From the NCBI GenBank assembly GCA_003635195.1, contig PYIY01000077.1, forward strand, positions 1 to 34,407: a stretch of 34,407 nucleotides of DNA, written 5' to 3'. The DNA is from Candidatus Poribacteria bacterium. Its GTDB lineage: Bacteria; Poribacteria; WGA-4E; WGA-3G. Under the pieces are notes generated by a model, which worked only from the letters and a program-made list of their open reading frames with translations, did not search any database and was not told the origin of the DNA. Position 1 is the stretch's first letter. Each line of letters opens with the position of its first letter. Position numbers and translations under genes: made by a program. This document shows positions 21,428 to 33,283 of the stretch, piece after piece.

Positions 21428-21485
21428 ATTGACAAATCCCCAAGATACAAATTCAAACTTTCGCGCTTACATAGGAGAAATCACA

Positions 21486-22238
21486 ATGCCCAAAATTATC
21501 TTTGTTTTGTCGCTATGTGCATTCCTGATTATTCCCAACCTTAGTATTGCTAATGTCGCAGAAGATGGACTCGTCGCTTATTGGCCCTTTGATGAAGGCG
21601 ATGGTAAAAAAGCCGAAGATGTCACCGGCAATGGACATGACGGAGAATTTAACGGAAATCCCAAGTGGATTGATGGAAAGTTCGGTACCGGACTCGAATT
21701 TGACGGTGAGGAGGACCACGTCGTTGTCGCGGATGATGCCGCTTTAGCAATTGAGGAAAATATCACCTTTATGGCGTGGTTCAGTCCAAACGATGTACTC
21801 ACCAGACGCCGCTTGATGGTTAAAAATAACTCTATCTTCGTTATTTTTGACTTCGGTAATGTGGATAGCATCGATTTCCTCGTCAAACCGAACAACACCT
21901 TTGCAGAATCCAAAACAACCGATTGGAAAATTGGCGAATGGTATCATTTCGCTGGAACATTCGATGGAAAAACAATGAAGGTCTATGTGAACGGCAAACT
22001 TGAAGGCGAAGCGGATAACGATGTACCGATTGCTCCTTCCAACTTAGAACTCTGGATCGGTGGTGACGATTTCGGCCGCCCAACGGACTTTTTCCCGGGT
22101 AAAATTGATGAAGTCCGACTCTATGAAAAAACCCTGAGCGAAGCCGACATCCAAAAGGTCATGGAGACACCACAAGATGTAGAAGCACGCGGCAAACTCA
22201 CCACAACGTGGGGACAATTGAAGGTAGGACTTTTTTAA
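21486..22238 (+). CDS. Exported LamG-like (concanavalin A-like) protein with TTTWG tail
   Basis: ATG 21486 follows TAGGAGAAATCACA. The 250-residue product has a signal peptide (IIFVLSLCAFLIIPNLSIA) and then one LamG/Laminin_G_3 jelly-roll: GLVAYWPFDEGDGKKAEDVT at the start, GNGHDGEFNGNPKWIDGKFG, LEFDGEEDHVVVADD, TFMAWFSP, the GEWYHFAGTFDGKTMKVYVN core and FPGKIDEVRLYEKTLSEADI at the end. Such domains bind carbohydrate or surface ligands outside the cytoplasm. After a short linker the chain ends KLTTTWGQLKVGLF. The tail TTTWGxLK matches those at 11120 and 30950; the extra VGLF comes from the last four codons before a TAA within a T/A-rich run. The Uma2 gene follows 45 bases later. Confidence 0.8.
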   Translation: MPKIIFVLSLCAFLIIPNLSIANVAEDGLVAYWPFDEGDGKKAEDVTGNGHDGEFNGNPKWIDGKFGTGLEFDGEEDHVVVADDAALAIEENITFMAWFSPNDVLTRRRLMVKNNSIFVIFDFGNVDSIDFLVKPNNTFAESKTTDWKIGEWYHFAGTFDGKTMKVYVNGKLEGEADNDVPIAPSNLELWIGGDDFGRPTDFFPGKIDEVRLYEKTLSEADIQKVMETPQDVEARGKLTTTWGQLKVGLF

Positions 22239-22282
22239 AAGATGTCCGCCGTTCAAATAGTTCGGTAGGAAAACAGCGCCTC

Positions 22283-22873
22283 ATGGCGGCACTTATGTCA
22301 ACGCTTACAGCACAAACCTATCTGACACCTGAAGAATATCTCGCTTGGGAACGCAAACAGCCCTTTAAAAACGAATACCACAACGGGCAGATCATCGCGA
22401 TGTCCGGGGCAAACCGCTGGCACAATTGTATCACAGTAGATATAGCTGTCCAACTTAGTAACCAATTGATGGGAAAAGAGTGTGAAGTCTATATCAGCCA
22501 GATGCGCGTACGCACTAGCCCGGAGGTCTCTTACTTCTATCCAGATGTTATTGTCGTCCGCGGTGAACCGCGTTTTGAGGATGACACTTTTGACACGCTT
22601 CTCAATCCGATTGTTGTTATAGAAGTGCTGTCCCCCTCAACAGCAGCGTTTGACAGCGGTGAAAAATTTGAACATTATAAACAACTTGCGTCCTTGCAAG
22701 AATATATCCTTATTTCACAAGGCAGCGTGCGTGTTGAACACTACAGTCGCCAAGAAACGCAATGGAATCACGACACCTTCCAACGTCTTGAGGATGTGCT
22801 ATCGCTTGCTTCAATTGAATGTGAAGTGCCTTTGCGTGCCATCTATAGACGTGTTATGCTCAACGCATCATAA
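22283..22873 (+). CDS. Uma2-family (DUF820) putative restriction-like endonuclease
   Basis: I use ATG 22283 (AGGA 13 bases upstream); ATG 22295 is a possible alternative. The product of 196 residues begins near LTAQTYLTPEEYLAWER, then EYHNGQIIAMSGANRWHN. The PD-(D/E)xK-type core follows: YFYPDVIVVRGEPRFED, then PIVVIEVLSPSTAAFDSGEK and FEHYKQLASLQEYILI, the usual Uma2 order of D, E-x-V and a later Lys/Tyr helix. Such nuclease-fold proteins are very abundant in cyanobacteria and related lineages and their function is unknown. It stands alone downstream of the LamG gene. A second member is encoded at 31772. Confidence 0.85.
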   Translation: MAALMSTLTAQTYLTPEEYLAWERKQPFKNEYHNGQIIAMSGANRWHNCITVDIAVQLSNQLMGKECEVYISQMRVRTSPEVSYFYPDVIVVRGEPRFEDDTFDTLLNPIVVIEVLSPSTAAFDSGEKFEHYKQLASLQEYILISQGSVRVEHYSRQETQWNHDTFQRLEDVLSLASIECEVPLRAIYRRVMLNAS

Positions 22874-27636: not shown

Positions 27637-28494
27637 ATGCTCACGCAAGAACAGTGTGATTTTTATCAAGAAAACGGTTATATCGGTGTTGAGGCAGTGC
27701 TAACAGCCGAAGAGGTCTCCGACCTCCAACGTGTCACCGATGAATTCGTTGAGAAATCGAGAGAGGTTACCGAACATACTGACATCTTTGATCTGGAACC
27801 CGGACATACCCCGGCGAACCCTCGCGTGCGTCGTATCAAAAGTCCGGCATTATACCATACCGTCTATGACCAGACCTTACGGCACCCCAACATATTGGAC
27901 ATAGTAGAACAACTTATCGGATCCGGCGTGCGATATAATGGGCATAAATTGAACATGAAGTATCCAGAGTTCGGAAGTCCAGTTGAATGGCATCAGGATT
28001 GGGCGTTTTATCCGCACACCAATGACGATCTACTTGCAGTTGGGGTCGTGATTGACGATATGACTATGGAGAACGGCGCGCTGATGATAGTTCCGGGGTC
28101 TCATAGGGGACCAACTTTAGATCATCACCAAGAGGGCGCATTTATTGGTGCCGTGACGGACCCTGATTTTACACCAGAGGGGGCTGTGCCCGTTGAATTG
28201 AAGGCGGGTGGAATCACAATCCATCATGTTCGGGCGTTACACGGTTCTGCCCCGAACACTTCTGATAAACCGAGACGCTTACTTCTTTTCCAGTATTGCG
28301 CAGTAGATGCCTGGCCCCTGAAGGGGATACCGGATTGGGACGCTTTCAACGACCTCATCATCCGTGGCGAACCGACGAATCAGCCGCGTATGGTAGCTGC
28401 ACCCGTGCGTATGCCGGAACCGTATGCAGAGTTGAAAGGCTCTATCTACGAAGTACAGTCTCTGCTTGATAACCCACTTTTTGCCAACAAGTGA
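27637..28494 (+). CDS. Phytanoyl-CoA dioxygenase (PhyH)-family Fe(II)/2-oxoglutarate oxygenase
   Basis: A 285-residue protein behind GGAGGAGTGGAACC. It starts MLTQEQCDFYQENGYIGVEA, a usual PhyH entry, and has one double-stranded beta-helix. The iron site is complete: VEWHQDWAF (H119, D121) and the distal His in VRALHGSAPNTS (H202). The Arg expected to hold 2-oxoglutarate lies in KPRRLLLFQY (R213/R214). NGALMIVPGSHRG is the usual intermediate motif. Known relatives hydroxylate many lipids and natural products; the substrate here is unknown, and no CoA-linked gene is nearby. TATAAT at 27605-27610 lies just upstream but its -35 is too close; the structured RNA region precedes it. Confidence 0.85.
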   Translation: MLTQEQCDFYQENGYIGVEAVLTAEEVSDLQRVTDEFVEKSREVTEHTDIFDLEPGHTPANPRVRRIKSPALYHTVYDQTLRHPNILDIVEQLIGSGVRYNGHKLNMKYPEFGSPVEWHQDWAFYPHTNDDLLAVGVVIDDMTMENGALMIVPGSHRGPTLDHHQEGAFIGAVTDPDFTPEGAVPVELKAGGITIHHVRALHGSAPNTSDKPRRLLLFQYCAVDAWPLKGIPDWDAFNDLIIRGEPTNQPRMVAAPVRMPEPYAELKGSIYEVQSLLDNPLFANK

Positions 28495-28647
28495 TTGGAT
28501 CGGTATCCTATGTTGTTGTGCTGAAAGGTACTTTGTAAGGTGTTATGAGGTTGAATAGAAGATGTGAGGCGTGGGGTCTCACACTTCTCATGGAGAAAGA
28601 GAGAAACTTTTCCCACTTTTAAAACGTTCTAAAGACCAAATGCCAAG

Positions 28648-28665
28648 TTAGAAAATGTTTTCTAA
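28648..28665. promoter_or_regulatory. Perfect inverted repeat TTAGAAAA-TG-TTTTCTAA, operator candidate
   Basis: The two 8-bp arms are exact complements around TG, and the site ends 27 bases before the -35 of the promoter at 28693. This is the position of an activator site for the selenoprotein gene. It could equally be a transcription-terminating hairpin for the preceding gene, but there is no GC core, so a protein-binding dyad is more likely. Confidence 0.4.
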
Positions 28666-28692
28666 AGCCTATATCACTTTTTTAGATTTAAC

Positions 28693-28722
28693 TTGACTTT
28701 TTTATCTAGGCTACTGTAAGAT
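28693..28722 (+). promoter_or_regulatory. Sigma-70 promoter of the selenoprotein gene
   Basis: TTGACT at 28693-28698 (5 of 6), an 18-bp spacer and TAAGAT at 28717-28722. Start near 28729, leaving a leader of about 120 nt. The leader contains CAAAACC-GAA-GGTTTTG (28772-28788) and an 8-bp hairpin GCGCAAAG/CTTTGTGC (28812-28831, one G-U pair) ending three bases before the ribosome site AAGGAG (28835-28840). The 354-base gap 28495-28848 has no gene. Confidence 0.55.
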
Positions 28723-28848
28723 TAATAGTGTAATTCTGAGATGAGTAGATCCAAGGCAATACATCTAAATCCAAAACCGAAGGTTTTGAGGCCTATGGAT
28801 TAACAAGAACCGCGCAAAGAATCCTTTGTGCATAAAGGAGTATAAAAA

Positions 28849-29841
28849 ATGCAGAAGTATAGAAGTTCTCTTGGCTTGCTTGTAGCGTTGCTTGTTGTAG
28901 GTGTCCTTTTTGCCTTCAACATCTATGCTGCCAAGGAAACGCAGGATAGTTCTGCTACTGAGAAAGTGACGCTCAGTGTAACCGGTATGACATGAGGTGG
29001 CTGTACCAGCGCAGTGCAGGATGCACTCAGTAAGGTTGCCGGCGTTTCTGAAGTAGTAAGCGTTTCTATGGATACTAACACCGCTGTTGTGAAGGTAGCG
29101 AAGGGAAAAGTAGCAACAGAGGCGTTAGTCAAAGCCATTGAGTCCGTTGAAGGGCGCAACTTTTCCGCTGCTCCTATTGAGGAAGTGGCACTCAGTGTAA
29201 CCGGTATGACGTGAGGTGGCTGTACCAGCGCAGTGCAGGATGCACTCAGTAAAGTTACCGGTGTTTCTGAAGTGGTAAGCGTTTCTATGGATACTAACAC
29301 CGCTGTTGTGAAAGTGCCAAGAGGAAAAGTAACACCAGAGGCGTTGGTCAAAGCCATTGAGTCCGTTGAAGGACGCAACTTTTCCGCTGCGGTCATTGAA
29401 AAAGTGACGCTCAGTGTAACCGGCATGACGTGAGGCGGCTGTGTCAGCGCAGTGCAGGATGCACTCAGTAAAGTTGCCGGTATCTCTGAAGTGGTAAGTG
29501 TTTCTATGGATACCAGTACCGCTGTTGTGAAAGTGCCAAGAGGAAAAGTAACATCAGAGGCGTTGGTCAAGGCTGTCGAATCCGTTGAAGGTCGTAATTT
29601 TGCCGCTACGGTCATTGAAGAAGTGACGCTCAGTGTCACTGGCATGGTGTGTGACGCATGTCCGAGCAAGGTACAGGATGCACTCAGTAAGGTTGCCGGT
29701 GTCTCTGAAGTGGTAAGCGTTTCTACCGACACAAACACTGCTGTCGTGAAAATTGCGCAAGGCAAGGTGACGACAGAAGCGTTAATCAAGGCTGTTGCAG
29801 CTATTGAAGGTGGTAGTTTTAAAGCGCAAGTCGCAGATTAA
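28849..29841 (+). CDS. Exported selenoprotein with four tandem heavy-metal-associated domains (three selenocysteines, one Cys)
   Basis: The frame runs from ATG 28849 (after AAAGGAG) to TAA 29839-29841, with in-frame TGA at 28993, 29212 and 29431, exactly 219 bp apart. Read as selenocysteine the product has 330 residues: a signal peptide (LLVALLVVGVLFAFNIYA), then four HMA repeats of 73 residues. The metal motif reads GMT-Sec-GGC at Sec49, Sec122 and Sec195, and GMVCDAC at Cys268. This is the GMTCxxC site of copper and mercury chaperones such as MerP and CopZ. After each TGA the hairpin AGTGCA-GGA-TGCACT starts 17 nt downstream, a bacterial SECIS-like element; it is broken in the Cys repeat. 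The domains outside the TGA are fully conserved, which argues against decay. It is probably a periplasmic soft-metal binding protein. No selA-D genes are in the window. Confidence 0.85.
29013..29027 (+). promoter_or_regulatory. SECIS-like hairpin 1
   Basis: AGTGCA pairs with TGCACT (six Watson-Crick pairs) around GGA, beginning 17 nt after the TGA at 28993-28995. The apical-loop G and the distance (about 23 nt from TGA to loop) fit the bacterial SECIS consensus used by SelB. Confidence 0.7.
29232..29246 (+). promoter_or_regulatory. SECIS-like hairpin 2
   Basis: The same 15 bases as hairpin 1 at the same distance from the TGA at 29212-29214. Confidence 0.7.
29451..29465 (+). promoter_or_regulatory. 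SECIS-like hairpin 3
   Basis: The same 15 bases again, placed 17 nt after the TGA at 29431-29433. Flanking bases differ (GGCGGCTGTGTC instead of GGTGGCTGTACC), yet the hairpin is unchanged. Confidence 0.7.
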
Positions 29842-29848
29842 AAATTAC

Positions 29849-29875
29849 GTGTGGGTGGACATCGTTCACCCACAC
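29849..29875. terminator. Bidirectional-looking terminator hairpin between convergent genes
   Basis: GTGTGGGTG and CACCCACAC form a perfect 9-bp stem around a 9-nt loop. It sits seven bases after the selenoprotein stop and 27 bases before the end of the minus-strand nuclease gene. Pyrimidine-rich TTCATCTCCTCTTCT follows on the plus strand and AAAATTAC lies on the other side, so it may serve both genes. Confidence 0.65.
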
Positions 29876-29902
29876 TTCATCTCCTCTTCTGCTGCCGTTA
29901 AC

Positions 29903-30703
29903 TTACCGGCGATGCACATCTAAGAACGTAAAGACCTTTTGAATCCGTTGCAGCTGCCTATGCAATGCAGCAGCGCGCTCAAATTCCAGTGCTTCTGAGG
30001 CGCTATCCCGTTTTCCAACCAAGCTTGCCTGCACTTTTTCATATTCCCCATCCAGCAAATTAACAATGTCTGTAATCATCTCTCCATAGCGTTCGCGCGT
30101 AATCAATGCTGCACAGGGCGCATCACACCGCTTTAAGTCATACTGAAAACAGGCGCGAAACCCCGGAACCGGTGTAATCTCGCCTTCACATGTACGAACT
30201 GGAAAAATCCGTTGTAAAACATCAATCGCTTCATCTGTCCATCGACGGCTCGACAACGGTCCAAAATATCTCGCACCATCGGGCTGGGTTTCGGATACAC
30301 GATCAAGGCGCGGAAAAGCCTCACCAACATCTATCCGAATATACCAAGATGTCCTTCCATATTTCATCGCGGTGTTATAGGAGGGTTGATATTCTTGGAT
30401 CAGTCGCGATTCAAGGAAGAGTGCTTCCTGTTCCGAACGACAAACTTGATACCGGACATCTGTTGTCCATCGGATAAGCCGTTTGATTTTGCTCGGGCGG
30501 TTCTTCGTTTTATGGAGATAAGAGCGCACCCGTTTCCGTAAACATTTCGCCTTGCCGATATAGAGGATCGTCCCTGTAGCTCCACGAAAAAAGTAAACCC
30601 CCGGGTCCATTGGGACATCGGCTACCATTTCTTGCGTCAGCATGAGTCGATTCGCGTAGGTCTGTTTTTTTAAAAATTTATCATATTTTCCTAAACGATT
30701 CAA
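29903..30703 (-). CDS. Short UvrC/Cho-like GIY-YIG nuclease
   Basis: A minus-strand product of 266 residues if started at TTG 30703, or 246 from ATG 30643; neither has a clear ribosome site, so the start is open. Residues about 35-110 form a GIY-YIG nuclease domain: DPGVYFFRGATGTILYIGKA, then CLRKRVRSYLHK and the helix with EQEALFLESRLIQEYQPSYN. A middle part (YFGPLSSRRW, then CFQYDLKRCDAPC) matches the UvrC Cys cluster. The end (ALEFERAAALHRQLQRIQKV) is a UVR-type helix. Full UvrC has about 600 residues, with a second RNase H-like nuclease domain and helix-hairpin-helix pair. Those are missing, as in Cho, which makes only the 3' incision in nucleotide excision repair. It is not followed by a partner gene. 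Confidence 0.75.
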   Translation of the reverse strand: MNRLGKYDKFLKKQTYANRLMLTQEMVADVPMDPGVYFFRGATGTILYIGKAKCLRKRVRSYLHKTKNRPSKIKRLIRWTTDVRYQVCRSEQEALFLESRLIQEYQPSYNTAMKYGRTSWYIRIDVGEAFPRLDRVSETQPDGARYFGPLSSRRWTDEAIDVLQRIFPVRTCEGEITPVPGFRACFQYDLKRCDAPCAALITRERYGEMITDIVNLLDGEYEKVQASLVGKRDSASEALEFERAAALHRQLQRIQKVFTFLDVHRR

Positions 30704-30815: not shown

Positions 30816-30889
30816 GGATTCGTGAAAAAAAGGCGCGAAACTCAAGAATTTCTTAAAACTGAATGACTCTGAAAGACACGTCCATATCC

Positions 30890-30918
30890 TTGACACATTT
30901 TTTTCTTTCTGCTAAACT
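30890..30918 (+). promoter_or_regulatory. Sigma-70 promoter of the second LamG gene
   Basis: A perfect TTGACA at 30890-30895, a 17-bp T-rich spacer and TAAACT at 30913-30918 (4 of 6). Start near 30925, about 25 nt before the ATG at 30950, with GGAGG at 30933-30937. Confidence 0.6.
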
Positions 30919-30949
30919 TGTATATTATCAACGGAGGAAAAAAGAAGCG

Positions 30950-31693
30950 ATGAAACACATATTTTGGTTCGCACTCATTGGCTGTTTGTATATAGCGGTG
31001 TATCCACTTTCTGCCGAGTTGCTGGATGATGCTGTCGGCATCTGGCTTTTCGATGAAGGCAAAGGTGGGACCGCTGGAGATACGTCGGGCAATGGAAATG
31101 ATGGCGCGATTAACGGCGCGAAATGGGCAGAAGGCAAATTCGGGGGCGCATTGGAATTTGAACCACCGCATGTCGTGACTGTTGAACACTCTGATAGCCT
31201 CAGTTTCAAAGAAGAAATGACCATCGCAACTTGGGTCTACATGAATAAAGGCGTTTCCGATACCGCTATTCGAAAGAACGGCTCCTATCTGTTGGAAGTA
31301 CAGGCACCAAATGAGAAAGTGCCGGGCGGCTATGTCTTCGGTATCTGGTCAGGCGGTGGGTTCACCGGCGGTGTGTGGGGAACAAGCGTCATTGAACCTG
31401 AAAAGTGGTATCACATTGTTGGACTCTACAATGGCAATGAGATGCAACTTTATGTAGATGGCACGCTTGAAGCCACAACTAAACAAGATGGCGATATCGG
31501 GCAGGCAGGCGAGCTGCTTTTCGGGACGTTTGGCGGCGAGAAATTTATTGGTAGATTGGACGAAGTTATCTTCTTTAACCGCGGCATCACAGAGGCGGAG
31601 GTCGCAGAGTTGATGAAAGGTGTTGAGGTTGTCCTACCTGTTTCCCCGAACGGGTTACTCACAACAACGTGGGGACGGCTCAAGAATCGTTGA
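30950..31693 (+). CDS. Exported LamG-like protein (second copy) with TTTWG tail
   Basis: ATG 30950 is 12 bases after GGAGG; the frame is open upstream to 30863, through the promoter, so that start is rejected. The 247-residue product has a signal peptide (FWFALIGCLYIAVYPLSA) and one LamG domain: GIWLFDEGKGGTAGDTSGNG, then GAINGAKWAEGKFGGALEF, a strand MTIATWVYM, the EKWYHIVGLYNGNEMQLYVD core and FIGRLDEVIFFNRGITEAEV at the end. It resembles the protein at 21486 in overall order. The end, LPVSPNGLLTTTWGRLKNR, shares LPVSP and the TTTWG tail with the propeller protein at 11120. It is probably an exported carbohydrate- or surface-binding protein. Confidence 0.8.
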   Translation: MKHIFWFALIGCLYIAVYPLSAELLDDAVGIWLFDEGKGGTAGDTSGNGNDGAINGAKWAEGKFGGALEFEPPHVVTVEHSDSLSFKEEMTIATWVYMNKGVSDTAIRKNGSYLLEVQAPNEKVPGGYVFGIWSGGGFTGGVWGTSVIEPEKWYHIVGLYNGNEMQLYVDGTLEATTKQDGDIGQAGELLFGTFGGEKFIGRLDEVIFFNRGITEAEVAELMKGVEVVLPVSPNGLLTTTWGRLKNR

Positions 31694-31771
31694 GGCAGTT
31701 GACATACGTGCTTGCAAGTATTATCATATAAGAAATCGGAAATTATTAAATATTCTTTCGCGGAGGACATC

Positions 31772-32359
31772 ATGGCAGACACGCAACTGGATCAACCGAC
31801 ACTTACACCGCGAGCCGGGCAGCAACGCCTTTTAACGGCTGATGACTTGGCGAGACAGCCTGATGATTCTCGCTATGAGCTCGTGAAAGGAGTACTCCGC
31901 AAAATGCCGCCTGCTGGATTTGAACACGGTATCTGTGCAGCTGAAATTGGAAGCAGACTTAACGTGCATGTTAGAACACACCAATTAGGTTATGTTTGCG
32001 GGGCCGAAACAGGTTTTAAGATTGCCCAAAATCCTGATACAGTGCGCGCACCAGATGCCGCCTTTGTTCGACAGGCATCAATTGAACGTCAAGGGATCGT
32101 CAAAGGTTATTGGGAAGGAGCTCCTGATCTGGCTGTTGAAGTCATCTCCCCTGGCGATACCTACGCCGAGGTTGCTGAGAAAGTAGAAGAGTGGTTGGCT
32201 GCTGGTTGCACAATGGTGTGGGTCGTCAATCCACGCCGAGAAACGGTGGAGGTTTATCGTTCCAATGAAGATTTTGCCGTTTTACGTGGAACCGATACGC
32301 TTGATGGTGATGATGTTGTCGAAGGGTTCCAATGTCAGGTTCAAGACATTTTTGTGTGA
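31772..32359 (+). CDS. Uma2-family (DUF820) putative endonuclease, second member
   Basis: ATG 31772 follows GGAGG by five bases; the frame upstream to 31712 has no such site. The 195-residue product contains RLLTADDLARQPDDSRYELV, then GVLRKMPPAGFEHGICAAEI and GAETGFKIAQNPDTVRAPDA, where RAPD-A is the Asp of the nuclease fold. It continues with APDLAVEVISPGDTYAEVAEK, the E-x-V motif and Lys helix, and MVWVVNPRRETVEVYRS. The gene shows the full PD-(D/E)xK order of Uma2 proteins. It shares only the fold pattern with the one at 22283, so the two are distant paralogs. Function in this family is unknown. It lies 78 bases after the LamG gene and 66 bases before PhyH. Confidence 0.85.
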   Translation: MADTQLDQPTLTPRAGQQRLLTADDLARQPDDSRYELVKGVLRKMPPAGFEHGICAAEIGSRLNVHVRTHQLGYVCGAETGFKIAQNPDTVRAPDAAFVRQASIERQGIVKGYWEGAPDLAVEVISPGDTYAEVAEKVEEWLAAGCTMVWVVNPRRETVEVYRSNEDFAVLRGTDTLDGDDVVEGFQCQVQDIFV

Positions 32360-32425
32360 CTGATAGGTAAGCATTCCAGACATATCTGGCACTTGCAACC
32401 TTACAACGGGAGACAGAGCATTACA

Positions 32426-33283
32426 ATGACACGATGGCAACCAAACGCTGAACAGAAGGCACACTATGAAACTGAAGGCTACTTCATCCTTCGCAATGTT
32501 ATCTCACAAGACTTGGCTGCACAACTCCGCGGCGTGATCCGTAATCACATCATGCTACCCGATCCCGGACAGTTCGCTGATATAGATCCGATGGATCCGA
32601 TGGACGATTCGCCGCAAGGACGTATCGCACGTTATCGGAAACTCAGCAACTTCTGCGTCCAAGCACCATTGATATGGCATAATATACACGCTGCCCCCGA
32701 AATACTCAACATCGCACGCTATTTTCTCGGGGATGACATTATTATGAAATTCAATAGCTGCTTCCTCAAACCACCCCTCACCGGTAGTGCAACCCCGTGG
32801 CATCAAGACAACGGGCTCTGGCGCGACGGTGAAACGGAGCCTTTCAACTTCTGGATACCCCTTGAACCCGCAACGCGGGAAAATGGATGCATGCAGTTCA
32901 TACCCGGCAGCCACAAAACCGAGATTATTGAGCACGTCTTGTATCCCGATAGTATACACGGTGAACTACCACGCGAAGCCGTTCAGGAGATGATCGAAAA
33001 GCACGGCGTACACTATATTGAGTTAGGTACTGGAGATATCGTCATCTGGCACAGCAGTCTTTGGCACTACAGCCCACCAAACAAAACTGAGCAGAGCCGT
33101 ATTGCTATCGCAGGGGTCTATACAAATCCAGAAATCGTCAAGACAAGCAGGCGTTTCTGGCATAACTTCCGATGGGTGATGAAGGACGGGGCGGTCTGCA
33201 CACAATTCCCGCCAGAAAATGTTGAGATGAAAATTGAAGACCCCGCAAAACCGAAGCCATTCCGACCTGCTGAGGACTATTAA
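32426..33283 (+). CDS. Phytanoyl-CoA dioxygenase (PhyH)-family oxygenase, second member
   Basis: ATG 32426 follows GGGAGACAGAGCATTACA. The 285-residue product has the PhyH order: EQKAHYETEGYFILRNVIS, then a variable helix and FNSCFLKPPLTGSATPWHQD, the iron-site motif with H126 and D128 (WHQDNGLWRD). NGCMQFIPGSHKTE follows, and the distal His lies in IWHSSLWHYSPPNKTEQSR (H214), with the Arg of EQSR as likely 2-oxoglutarate ligand. The protein is a distant relative of the one at 27637. The sulfatase gene starts only 3 bases after its stop, so the two are very likely co-transcribed and possibly act on the same substrate, such as a sulfated lipid or sterol; that is inference. Confidence 0.85.
   Translation: MTRWQPNAEQKAHYETEGYFILRNVISQDLAAQLRGVIRNHIMLPDPGQFADIDPMDPMDDSPQGRIARYRKLSNFCVQAPLIWHNIHAAPEILNIARYFLGDDIIMKFNSCFLKPPLTGSATPWHQDNGLWRDGETEPFNFWIPLEPATRENGCMQFIPGSHKTEIIEHVLYPDSIHGELPREAVQEMIEKHGVHYIELGTGDIVIWHSSLWHYSPPNKTEQSRIAIAGVYTNPEIVKTSRRFWHNFRWVMKDGAVCTQFPPENVEMKIEDPAKPKPFRPAEDY

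What the first reader, a model, noticed from the sequence alone, without database searches (positions are those of the whole stretch)
28849..29841. A tandem-HMA selenoprotein with three selenocysteines in one exported chain
Three in-frame TGA codons, each exactly 219 bp apart, sit where the first Cys of GMTCxxC belongs. A fourth repeat has TGT at the same place. Everything else in the frame (signal peptide, four HMA domains, spacing) is intact. TGA serves as a normal stop in other genes here, so whole-genome recoding does not explain it. Selenocysteine in single HMA or MerP-like proteins has been reported from metagenomes, but three per chain in tandem repeats is unusual. It would give a strong soft-metal (Hg, Cu, Ag) site and would be split by ordinary annotation into four fragments.
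Basis: partly seen in the sequence, partly recalled or inferred. Interest (0 to 1): 0.95.

Follow-up and report, generated by a model that had tools for sequence, protein, structure and literature searches.

The report
Selenium-rich tandem metal-binding protein
A Poribacteria genome holds an intact gene for a likely exported chain of four metal-binding units, three of which would carry the rare selenium amino acid selenocysteine in their metal site, each with its own likely insertion signal; it matters because a close relative's gene has four such sites, one more than the highest number given in the table of a 2026 review of prokaryotic selenoproteins.

Summary
Window 28849-29841 is one frame of four HMA domains; its only internal stops are UGAs (28993, 29212, 29431) at the first Cys of GMxCxxC in repeats 1-3, with TGT in repeat 4. 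The genome (Candidatus Poribacteria) has tRNA-Sec beside selB, plus selA and a Sec-type selD. Tandem genes with UGAs at the same place occur in 4 of 84 Poribacteria genomes, in two genera; one (G020) has five repeats and four UGAs. Single-domain UGA-HMA lipoproteins are widespread in the family. All 117 UGA sites collected have a hairpin core at one place, 18 nt downstream; its stem is nearly frozen at synonymous positions and shows a few compensatory changes, while 3 of 12 Cys sites keep it. Selection across the gene is purifying (dN 0.03, dS 0.39). Each repeat thus carries codon plus SECIS-like hairpin, so duplicating a domain would add a selenocysteine. The likeliest function is a soft-metal trap outside the cytoplasm (inferred). 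Sec insertion and metal binding are untested. Single Sec-HMA proteins were known; an expandable multi-Sec array is a new variant.

The parts
28849..29838 (+). Tandem HMA selenoprotein gene, 330 codons, TAA stop at 29839-29841
   Evidence: orthologue 93% identical in G032, dN 0.030 and dS 0.39 over the frame
28834..28840 (+). AAAGGAG, ribosome-binding-site-like, 8 nt before the ATG
   Evidence: Read from the sequence; not tested
28849..28932 (+). Signal-peptide-like N-terminus (MQKYRSSLGLLVALLVVGVLFAFNIYAA)
   Evidence: Judged by eye from the translation; low-confidence helix in the model
28959..29177 (+). Repeat 1, HMA domain with UGA
29178..29396 (+). Repeat 2, HMA domain with UGA
29397..29615 (+). 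Repeat 3, HMA domain with UGA
29616..29834 (+). Repeat 4, HMA domain with Cys (GMVCDAC)
28993..28995 (+). Predicted Sec codon UGA 1 (residue 49)
29212..29214 (+). Predicted Sec codon UGA 2 (residue 122)
29431..29433 (+). Predicted Sec codon UGA 3 (residue 195)
29650..29652 (+). Cys codon TGT at the matching place of repeat 4
29013..29027 (+). SECIS-like hairpin 1: AGUGCA-GGA-UGCACU, loop 23 nt after UGA 1
   Evidence: family-wide counts
29232..29246 (+). SECIS-like hairpin 2, same sequence
   Evidence: family-wide counts
29451..29465 (+). SECIS-like hairpin 3, same sequence
   Evidence: family-wide counts
29670..29684 (+). Broken counterpart of the hairpin in the Cys repeat (GUA for GUG, synonymous)
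29844..29880 (+). Inverted repeat just after the stop, terminator-like; similar sequence in G032
   Evidence: 82% complementary arms; one search prints the G032 counterpart; not picked up by the terminator scan

Best explanation
The gene at 28849-29841 encodes four tandem HMA domains, and its three in-frame UGA codons are most likely read as selenocysteine, each probably directed by its own SECIS-like hairpin 18 nt downstream inside the coding sequence, to make a predicted exported protein that would hold soft metal ions such as Hg(II), Cu(I) or Ag(I) at UxxC sites. Because codon and hairpin lie in the same 219-base unit, duplicating a domain would also duplicate the signal to insert selenocysteine, so the number of Sec residues can grow (one in the single lipoproteins, three here, four in G020). 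It can also fall, when a repeat takes Cys and its hairpin decays. Shown here by sequence: the UGAs and their place, the hairpin and its conservation, the machinery genes, purifying selection, relatives, synteny. Inferred: Sec insertion at all three sites in one chain, export, the metal, the role of a metal trap, and the direction of the Sec-Cys exchange.
For: Machinery in the same genome: tRNA-Sec (C194:5450) 17 nt after the stop of selB, selA, and a UGA-containing selD. Conservation: tandem genes with UGAs at first Cys in G000, G032, G020 and G038, that is 4 of 84 Poribacteria genomes. Coding past the UGAs: window against G032, 70 synonymous and 20 nonsynonymous codon differences, dN 0.030, dS 0.39; 18 and 0 between UGA1 and UGA2, 15 and 8 between UGA2 and UGA3, 30 and 7 after UGA3. 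Hairpin: 117 of 117 UGA sites form the 4-bp core at the same place, against 278 of 5850 synonymous resamples and 3 of 12 Cys sites. The stem Val codon is GTG in 114 of 115, Ala GCA in 113 of 113 and Gln CAG in 109 of 109 distinct contexts, while other Val columns are spread over the codons, for example 33/32/30/18 at position -5. Covariation within the stem: A-U for G-C in L180 with L181 as G-U intermediate, and G-C for A-U in L182, L185, L188; 90.1% of pair cells formed against 14-47% when slid. The published bSECIS limits are met by the window's three sites. Metal fold: HMA by Pfam; model matches MerP 1osd (TM 0.91 on the target) and HMA pairs of ATP7B and CopA.
Against: No expression, mass or metal data. 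The window's hairpins are not more stable than dinucleotide shuffles (z 0.13, -0.93, -0.63). The published limits alone discriminate poorly: 2223 of 5850 synonymous resamples and 6 of 12 Cys sites also contain some hairpin that fits; the case rests on place and conservation, and the sites are related, so counts are not independent events. Covariation is modest: of 18 double-change cells, 14 are in the outer pair 20-36, which is unpaired in 61 of 108 sequences; only 4 are in the inner stem; sliding by +1 gives 34 such cells; the count of pair types is not above shuffles (134 of 500); the innermost pair fails in 10 of 108. G032's Cys repeat and two other Cys HMAs keep the core. selD's own UGA is followed by a different, weak hairpin (60-nt MFE -6.8). 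Seven genomes with UGA-HMA have no selA hit over the cut-off (G004, G012, G030, G034, G049, G051, G071), probably assembly gaps. No metal-resistance gene was found among the scanned neighbours. Reading three UGAs in series could be inefficient.
Confidence: 0.72

Rival explanations
1. The chain is a selenoprotein, but the UxxC motifs act as selenol/thiol redox centres rather than as metal sites.
For: A 2026 review holds that most uncharacterised prokaryotic selenoproteins, many with UxxC or CxxU, are likely redox proteins (PMC13188914, section 7 part 1).
Against: The units are HMA domains by Pfam and NCBIfam, with the GMTxxxC loop of MerP and CopZ, and the model's best matches are HMA structures.
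Confidence: 0.12
2. The chain is mainly a selenium store or carrier, as proposed for animal selenoprotein P, and metal binding is secondary.
For: Several Sec residues in a predicted exported chain; SelA and SelB co-occur in most sponge-symbiont bins of one study but are missing in most related references (PMC5649159, passages).
Against: The metal loop is kept, the UGAs of the four tandem genes sit only at a metal-ligand position, and the Cys repeats keep CxxC. No receptor or Sec lyase was looked for.
Confidence: 0.08
3. Only some UGAs are read; termination at the others gives short products, so the array works as a selenium-dependent switch rather than as one long chain.
For: Each UGA is also a stop codon, and serial insertion is expected to be inefficient (general knowledge, no call).
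Against: Purifying selection continues after the last UGA, through the Cys repeat (30 synonymous and 7 nonsynonymous differences); the array is longer in G020.
Confidence: 0.06
4. UGA means tryptophan or another ordinary residue here, or the gene is a pseudogene or an assembly error.
For: 15 database proteins of the single-domain kind have W at this place (GMTW), probably gene calls that read the UGA as Trp; their DNA was not seen.
Against: TGA ends other genes; UGA aligns with Cys of the metal loop; the pattern recurs in separate genomes; dN/dS is about 0.08.
Confidence: 0.02

Closest known systems
Single-domain Sec-HMA proteins (MerP-like selenoproteins of the GOS survey, PMC2398784; NCBIfam NF041115 UxxU metal-binding protein)
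   Same: HMA or MerP-type protein with predicted Sec in the metal site
   Different: The 2026 table gives NF041115 two Sec in one UxxU motif; the GOS table lists MerP without a motif. Here UxxC, one predicted Sec per domain, three or four such domains in series
MerT/CopZ fusion-like heavy-metal transport selenoprotein NF045683 and the UxxC cation-transporting ATPase (TIGR01525)
   Same: Sec in an HMA-type or metal-transport protein
   Different: By their names these are parts of membrane transporters; this chain matched only the HMA part (120.6 bits against a cut-off of 375 for NF045683)
Poribacterial paired single Sec-HMA lipoproteins (L054 6278-7110, L061, L062 and others)
   Same: Same domain, same hairpin, same place between PhyH and GIY-YIG genes
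   Different: One domain and one UGA each, with a lipobox-like Cys; the tandem gene has none and ends in a Cys repeat
N-terminal HMA arrays of copper ATPases (ATP7A/ATP7B, CopA)
   Same: Series of HMA domains
   Different: All-Cys and attached to a pump; in the model of this chain the last strand of each unit runs into the first strand of the next
Animal selenoprotein P
   Same: Several Sec residues in one exported chain (works like)
   Different: No homology claimed or tested; its SECIS elements lie in the 3' UTR (PMC5133445, abstract start in the listing), whereas here each UGA has its own hairpin

Membership tests
HMA domain (PF00403) | Score over Pfam's gathering cut-off, with the GMxCxxC loop | tested here: met
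   140.4 bits against 24.8, four stretches; model matches MerP and CopZ
Bacterial selenoprotein | Sec machinery in the same genome | tested here: met
   tRNA-Sec, selA, selB and selD all over cut-off
Bacterial selenoprotein | In-frame UGA aligned with a conserved Cys in homologues | tested here: met
   All in-frame UGAs at first Cys in four tandem genes; Cys in repeat 4 and in Cys homologues
Bacterial selenoprotein | SECIS hairpin just downstream within the published limits | tested here: met
   Limits from PMC13188914, Fig 2 legend (passage). Window sites: loop 3, stem 6, spacing 23, G first in the loop, 50-nt MFE -14.8 to -16.4. The limits alone are also met by 2223 of 5850 resamples
Bacterial selenoprotein | Sec found in the protein | not testable with these tools
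   Needs mass spectrometry or 75Se labelling
NF041115 UxxU metal-binding (seleno)protein | Two Sec in a UxxU motif (as listed in PMC13188914) | tested here: not met
   The motif is UxxC in 117 of 117 UGA sites collected. The whole chain scores 157.1 bits against 95 by summing four domains; the two single-domain relatives tested score 53.4 and 51.4
MerP (TIGR02052) | Part of a mer gene cluster | tested here: not met
   Scanned neighbours in the window include no mer gene; 127.2 bits against 92.55, summed over four domains. The genome was not searched for mer genes elsewhere
NF045683 MerT/CopZ selenoprotein | Score over the curated cut-off of 375 bits (MerT part present) | tested here: not met
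   120.6 bits, C-terminal part of the profile in the best stretch

The most novel reading that the evidence does not exclude
Poribacteria have evolved an expandable selenocysteine array: the repeat unit carries a metal-site UGA plus its own SECIS, so each domain duplication adds one selenocysteine. This has built chains with three and four Sec residues, with Cys repeats nesting among the Sec repeats of their own genus in two genera, as if Cys had replaced Sec twice. It would be a bacterial multi-Sec scavenger of mercury-class metals and would show that bacterial ribosomes read several UGAs in series.
Probability: 0.5. Interest if true: 0.87.

Novelty: new variant of a known kind. Interest (0 to 1): 0.76.

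Why it matters
In the 2026 inventory of 119 prokaryotic selenoprotein families and subfamilies the highest tabulated Sec count is 3, for an arsenite methyltransferase/AhpD domain selenoprotein (PMC13188914, section 7 parts 1 and 2; the text also mentions 'multiple' Sec in some archaeal FrhD/VhuD, with no number). G020's chain would have 4, in repeats of one domain. The family is a natural series of one to four codon-plus-hairpin modules, so it makes serial Sec insertion by a bacterial ribosome directly testable, and it shows Sec and Cys at the same site of sister repeats in one gene. Public databases hide it: pieces are filed as 'cation transporter' and 'hypothetical protein'.

Tried and rejected
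Recoding of UGA across the genome: rejected, since TGA ends other genes. Pseudogene or assembly error: rejected by orthologues and dN/dS. Metal-operon context: not found among the 20 window proteins scanned; the genome has one heavy-metal ATPase over the cut-off, with a Cys HMA, on another contig. Rfam scan of 28500-29950: only a chance match. Promoter and terminator scan: no more than expected. Multi-UGA HMA outside Poribacteria: a looser pattern matched 25 of 386 genomes (302 of the 386 outside the phylum), but of the 30 listed matches only the nine in the four known genomes show TGA-GGN-NNN-TGY; the rest look like chance, one per genome, judged by eye from the printed start of each. Domain tree (67 of 146 domains, loop residues masked): one clade of all tandem Cys repeats is rejected at p-AU 0.021, but I had seen a first tree before naming the group; one clade of all tandem domains is not rejected (0.080; 0.469 without G038's first repeat). 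Only 64 columns, and gene conversion could mimic the pattern; the database pieces were assigned to a genus by similarity. Foldseek rows for EF-G and other large proteins were read as off-target. None of the listings of paper searches, nor the passages I opened, names a tandem or multi-Sec HMA protein; only titles, abstract starts and passages were seen, apart from two parts of one review section. The Olavius symbiont paper, the review's source for several related families, is not held.

Full report
What is there. The frame 28849-29841 reads through four HMA domains with three internal TGA codons and ends in TAA. The TGAs at 28993, 29212 and 29431 occupy the first Cys of the loop in repeats 1-3 (GMTUGGC); repeat 4 has TGT in GMVCDAC. 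Repeats are 219 bases long. Pfam finds HMA in four stretches.

Whose genome. The window is contig C77 of a 6.45 Mb assembly, 93% complete.

Machinery. tRNA-Sec (anticodon tca) starts 17 nt after the stop of selB on C194. selA is on C208. selD is on C123 and itself has a UGA in CAGUASK, the UxxK motif listed for SelD; the hairpin after that UGA is weak (60-nt MFE -6.8). Of 84 Poribacteria genomes, 71 have selA over the cut-off. Seven genomes with UGA-HMA do not (G004, G012, G030, G034, G049, G051, G071; UGA); G012 and G034 have larger partial hits. Most of these are draft assemblies, so gaps are the likely cause, but this is a result against the reading.

Relatives. A strict tandem pattern occurs in 4 of 84 Poribacteria genomes: the window's, G032, G020 and, in another genus, G038. 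G020 has five repeats with four UGAs and a terminal TGT; its repeats 2, 3 and 4 are 91-96% identical, which suggests recent duplication. All in-frame TGAs of the four genes are at first-Cys codons. G040, of G038's genus, shows only a Cys-repeat piece at a contig end. Single-domain UGA-HMA lipoproteins, often as an adjacent pair, are common in the family. Protein databases hold the arrays as pieces. In one search 14 of 26 hits end exactly at GMT, where the next UGA falls; 12 of these are 66 aa long and start at the residue of the hairpin's GTG; one of them, P0094, equals the window's own piece between UGA 2 and UGA 3. Another search gave 12 clusters of 129-aa C-terminal pieces among 41 hits, two named 'cation transporter [Candidatus Poribacteria bacterium]'. 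Twelve further pieces (P0002-P0013) start the same way and carry two or three Cys repeats. If they start just after a UGA, as the start suggests, the mix of Sec and Cys repeats varies.

Position. The gene sits between a PhyH and a GIY-YIG gene, downstream of iPGM, PRPP synthetase and a glycosyltransferase. A like order, judged by protein lengths and by Pfam for members in G020, G038 and G028, surrounds the tandem gene in G032, G020 and G038 and the single-domain pair in G005 and G028 (G028 has one more gene in between). G020 has the pair and the tandem gene side by side. The window's own genome, as assembled, shows no pair.

The hairpin. From regions picked by hand out of the capped table, a motif filter gave 129 distinct HMA loop contexts: 117 UGA, from 61 genomes, and 12 Cys, six of them tandem repeats. 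The filter requires Cys or UGA at both loop positions, so it cannot show UGA elsewhere, and it drops poor matches such as L186. In all 117 UGA sites bases 19-22 after the UGA pair with bases 28-31. Resampling codons synonymously gives that core in 278 of 5850 trials; 3 of 12 Cys sites have it (1 of the 6 tandem Cys repeats). In 79 of 117 sites the best hairpin has a 3-nt loop 23 nt after UGA and 6 or 7 pairs. The Val codon of the stem is GTG in 114 of 115 and the Ala codon GCA in 113 of 113 distinct contexts, while Val at position -5 uses GTG 33, GTC 32, GTA 30, GTT 18. Compensatory changes occur: GUAC/GUAC in L180 with a G-U intermediate in L181, and a G-C for A-U closing pair in L182, L185 and L188. 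Counted on 108 distinct sequences with seven pairs, 90.1% of cells pair (shuffled 87.4, 0 of 500 as high; slid 14-47%), and 18 cells have changes on both sides against 7.3 shuffled (0 of 500). But 14 of the 18 lie in the outer pair, which 61 of 108 sequences lack, a slide of +1 gives 34 such cells, and pair types are not above shuffles (134 of 500). The inner-stem covariation is thus real but small, and the synonymous freezing is the stronger evidence. The limits of the bacterial SECIS model (PMC13188914, Fig 2 legend, passage) are met by the window's three sites; 112 of 117 sites have a 45-nt MFE of -7.5 or lower. The model alone is permissive: 2223 of 5850 resamples and 6 of 12 Cys sites contain some fitting hairpin, and the window's hairpins are no more stable than shuffles. 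In repeat 4 the Val codon is GUA and the hairpin is lost with no change in that residue.

Selection. Between the window and G032 the gene shows 70 synonymous and 20 nonsynonymous codon differences, dN 0.030, dS 0.39; after UGA3, 30 and 7. Translation beyond the UGAs is therefore under selection.

Structure and function. AlphaFold on 13 sequences, with Cys for Sec, gives mean pLDDT 83.9, pTM 0.66 and four HMA-type units, the last strand of each running into the first strand of the next (residues 106-118, 179-191, 252-264). The best structural matches are HMA pairs of ATP7B and CopA, and MerP. From established knowledge of HMA domains (no call), the two loop Cys bind Cu(I), Hg(II) or Ag(I), and Sec would be expected to bind such metals more tightly. 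With a predicted signal peptide and no attached pump, a metal trap outside the cytoplasm is the most likely role. This is inference.

Evolution. In a domain tree of 67 domains without the loop residues, the Cys repeats group with Sec repeats of the same genus (18 domains, 100/90; 14 domains, 100/99). One clade of all Cys repeats is rejected (p-AU 0.021, group named after a first tree was seen), while one clade of all tandem domains is not (0.080). Two separate Sec-Cys switches fit this, but 64 columns and possible gene conversion leave it open.

Prior knowledge. The 2026 inventory (PMC13188914, section 7 parts 1 and 2 read, passages elsewhere) covers 119 families and subfamilies with a highest tabulated count of three Sec; it includes UxxU metal-binding NF041115 and a UxxC ATPase. 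The GOS survey (PMC2398784, passages) lists MerP-like selenoproteins. SelA and SelB are typical of sponge-symbiont bins in one study (PMC5649159, passages). None of the passages or listings seen describes a tandem array.

Noticed in passing
L058 3769-5424 (-), G000:C117: A planctomycete-type cytochrome c (PSCyt1) plus WD40 protein in the same genome ends in a Sec-HMA domain (GMTUGAC) with the same hairpin; frames of similar length in the order (L189, L190, L191) have a Cys HMA.
   Followed up: partly
L054 5759-6250 (-), L061 5509-6003 (-): A 164-165-aa lipoprotein-like gene lies just downstream of the single Sec-HMA pair; the L054 copy has an HMA-like stretch (VTLSVTGM) but no Cys pair there. 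No Pfam match for either; no NCBIfam match for the L054 copy.
   Followed up: partly
L056 5933-7165 and 11642-12889: Two IS605-type TnpB genes flank the tandem gene, PhyH and glycosyltransferase block in G038. The tandem gene lies on the other strand relative to PhyH than in the window, and its N-terminus resembles that of the first single lipoprotein.
   Followed up: no
P0068-P0080, P0082, P0084 (15 proteins): Database proteins of the single-domain kind have W where the relatives have UGA (GMTW), probably gene calls that read UGA as Trp; their DNA was not seen.
   Followed up: partly
window 21429-22873, 27637-28494, 30863-33283: LamG, Uma2 and PhyH genes each occur twice in the window.
   Followed up: no
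L011 529-3159, G000:C100: Two adjacent genes with N-terminal Cys HMA domains followed by a hydrophobic stretch; the second has a long Asn/Gly-rich repeat.
   Followed up: no
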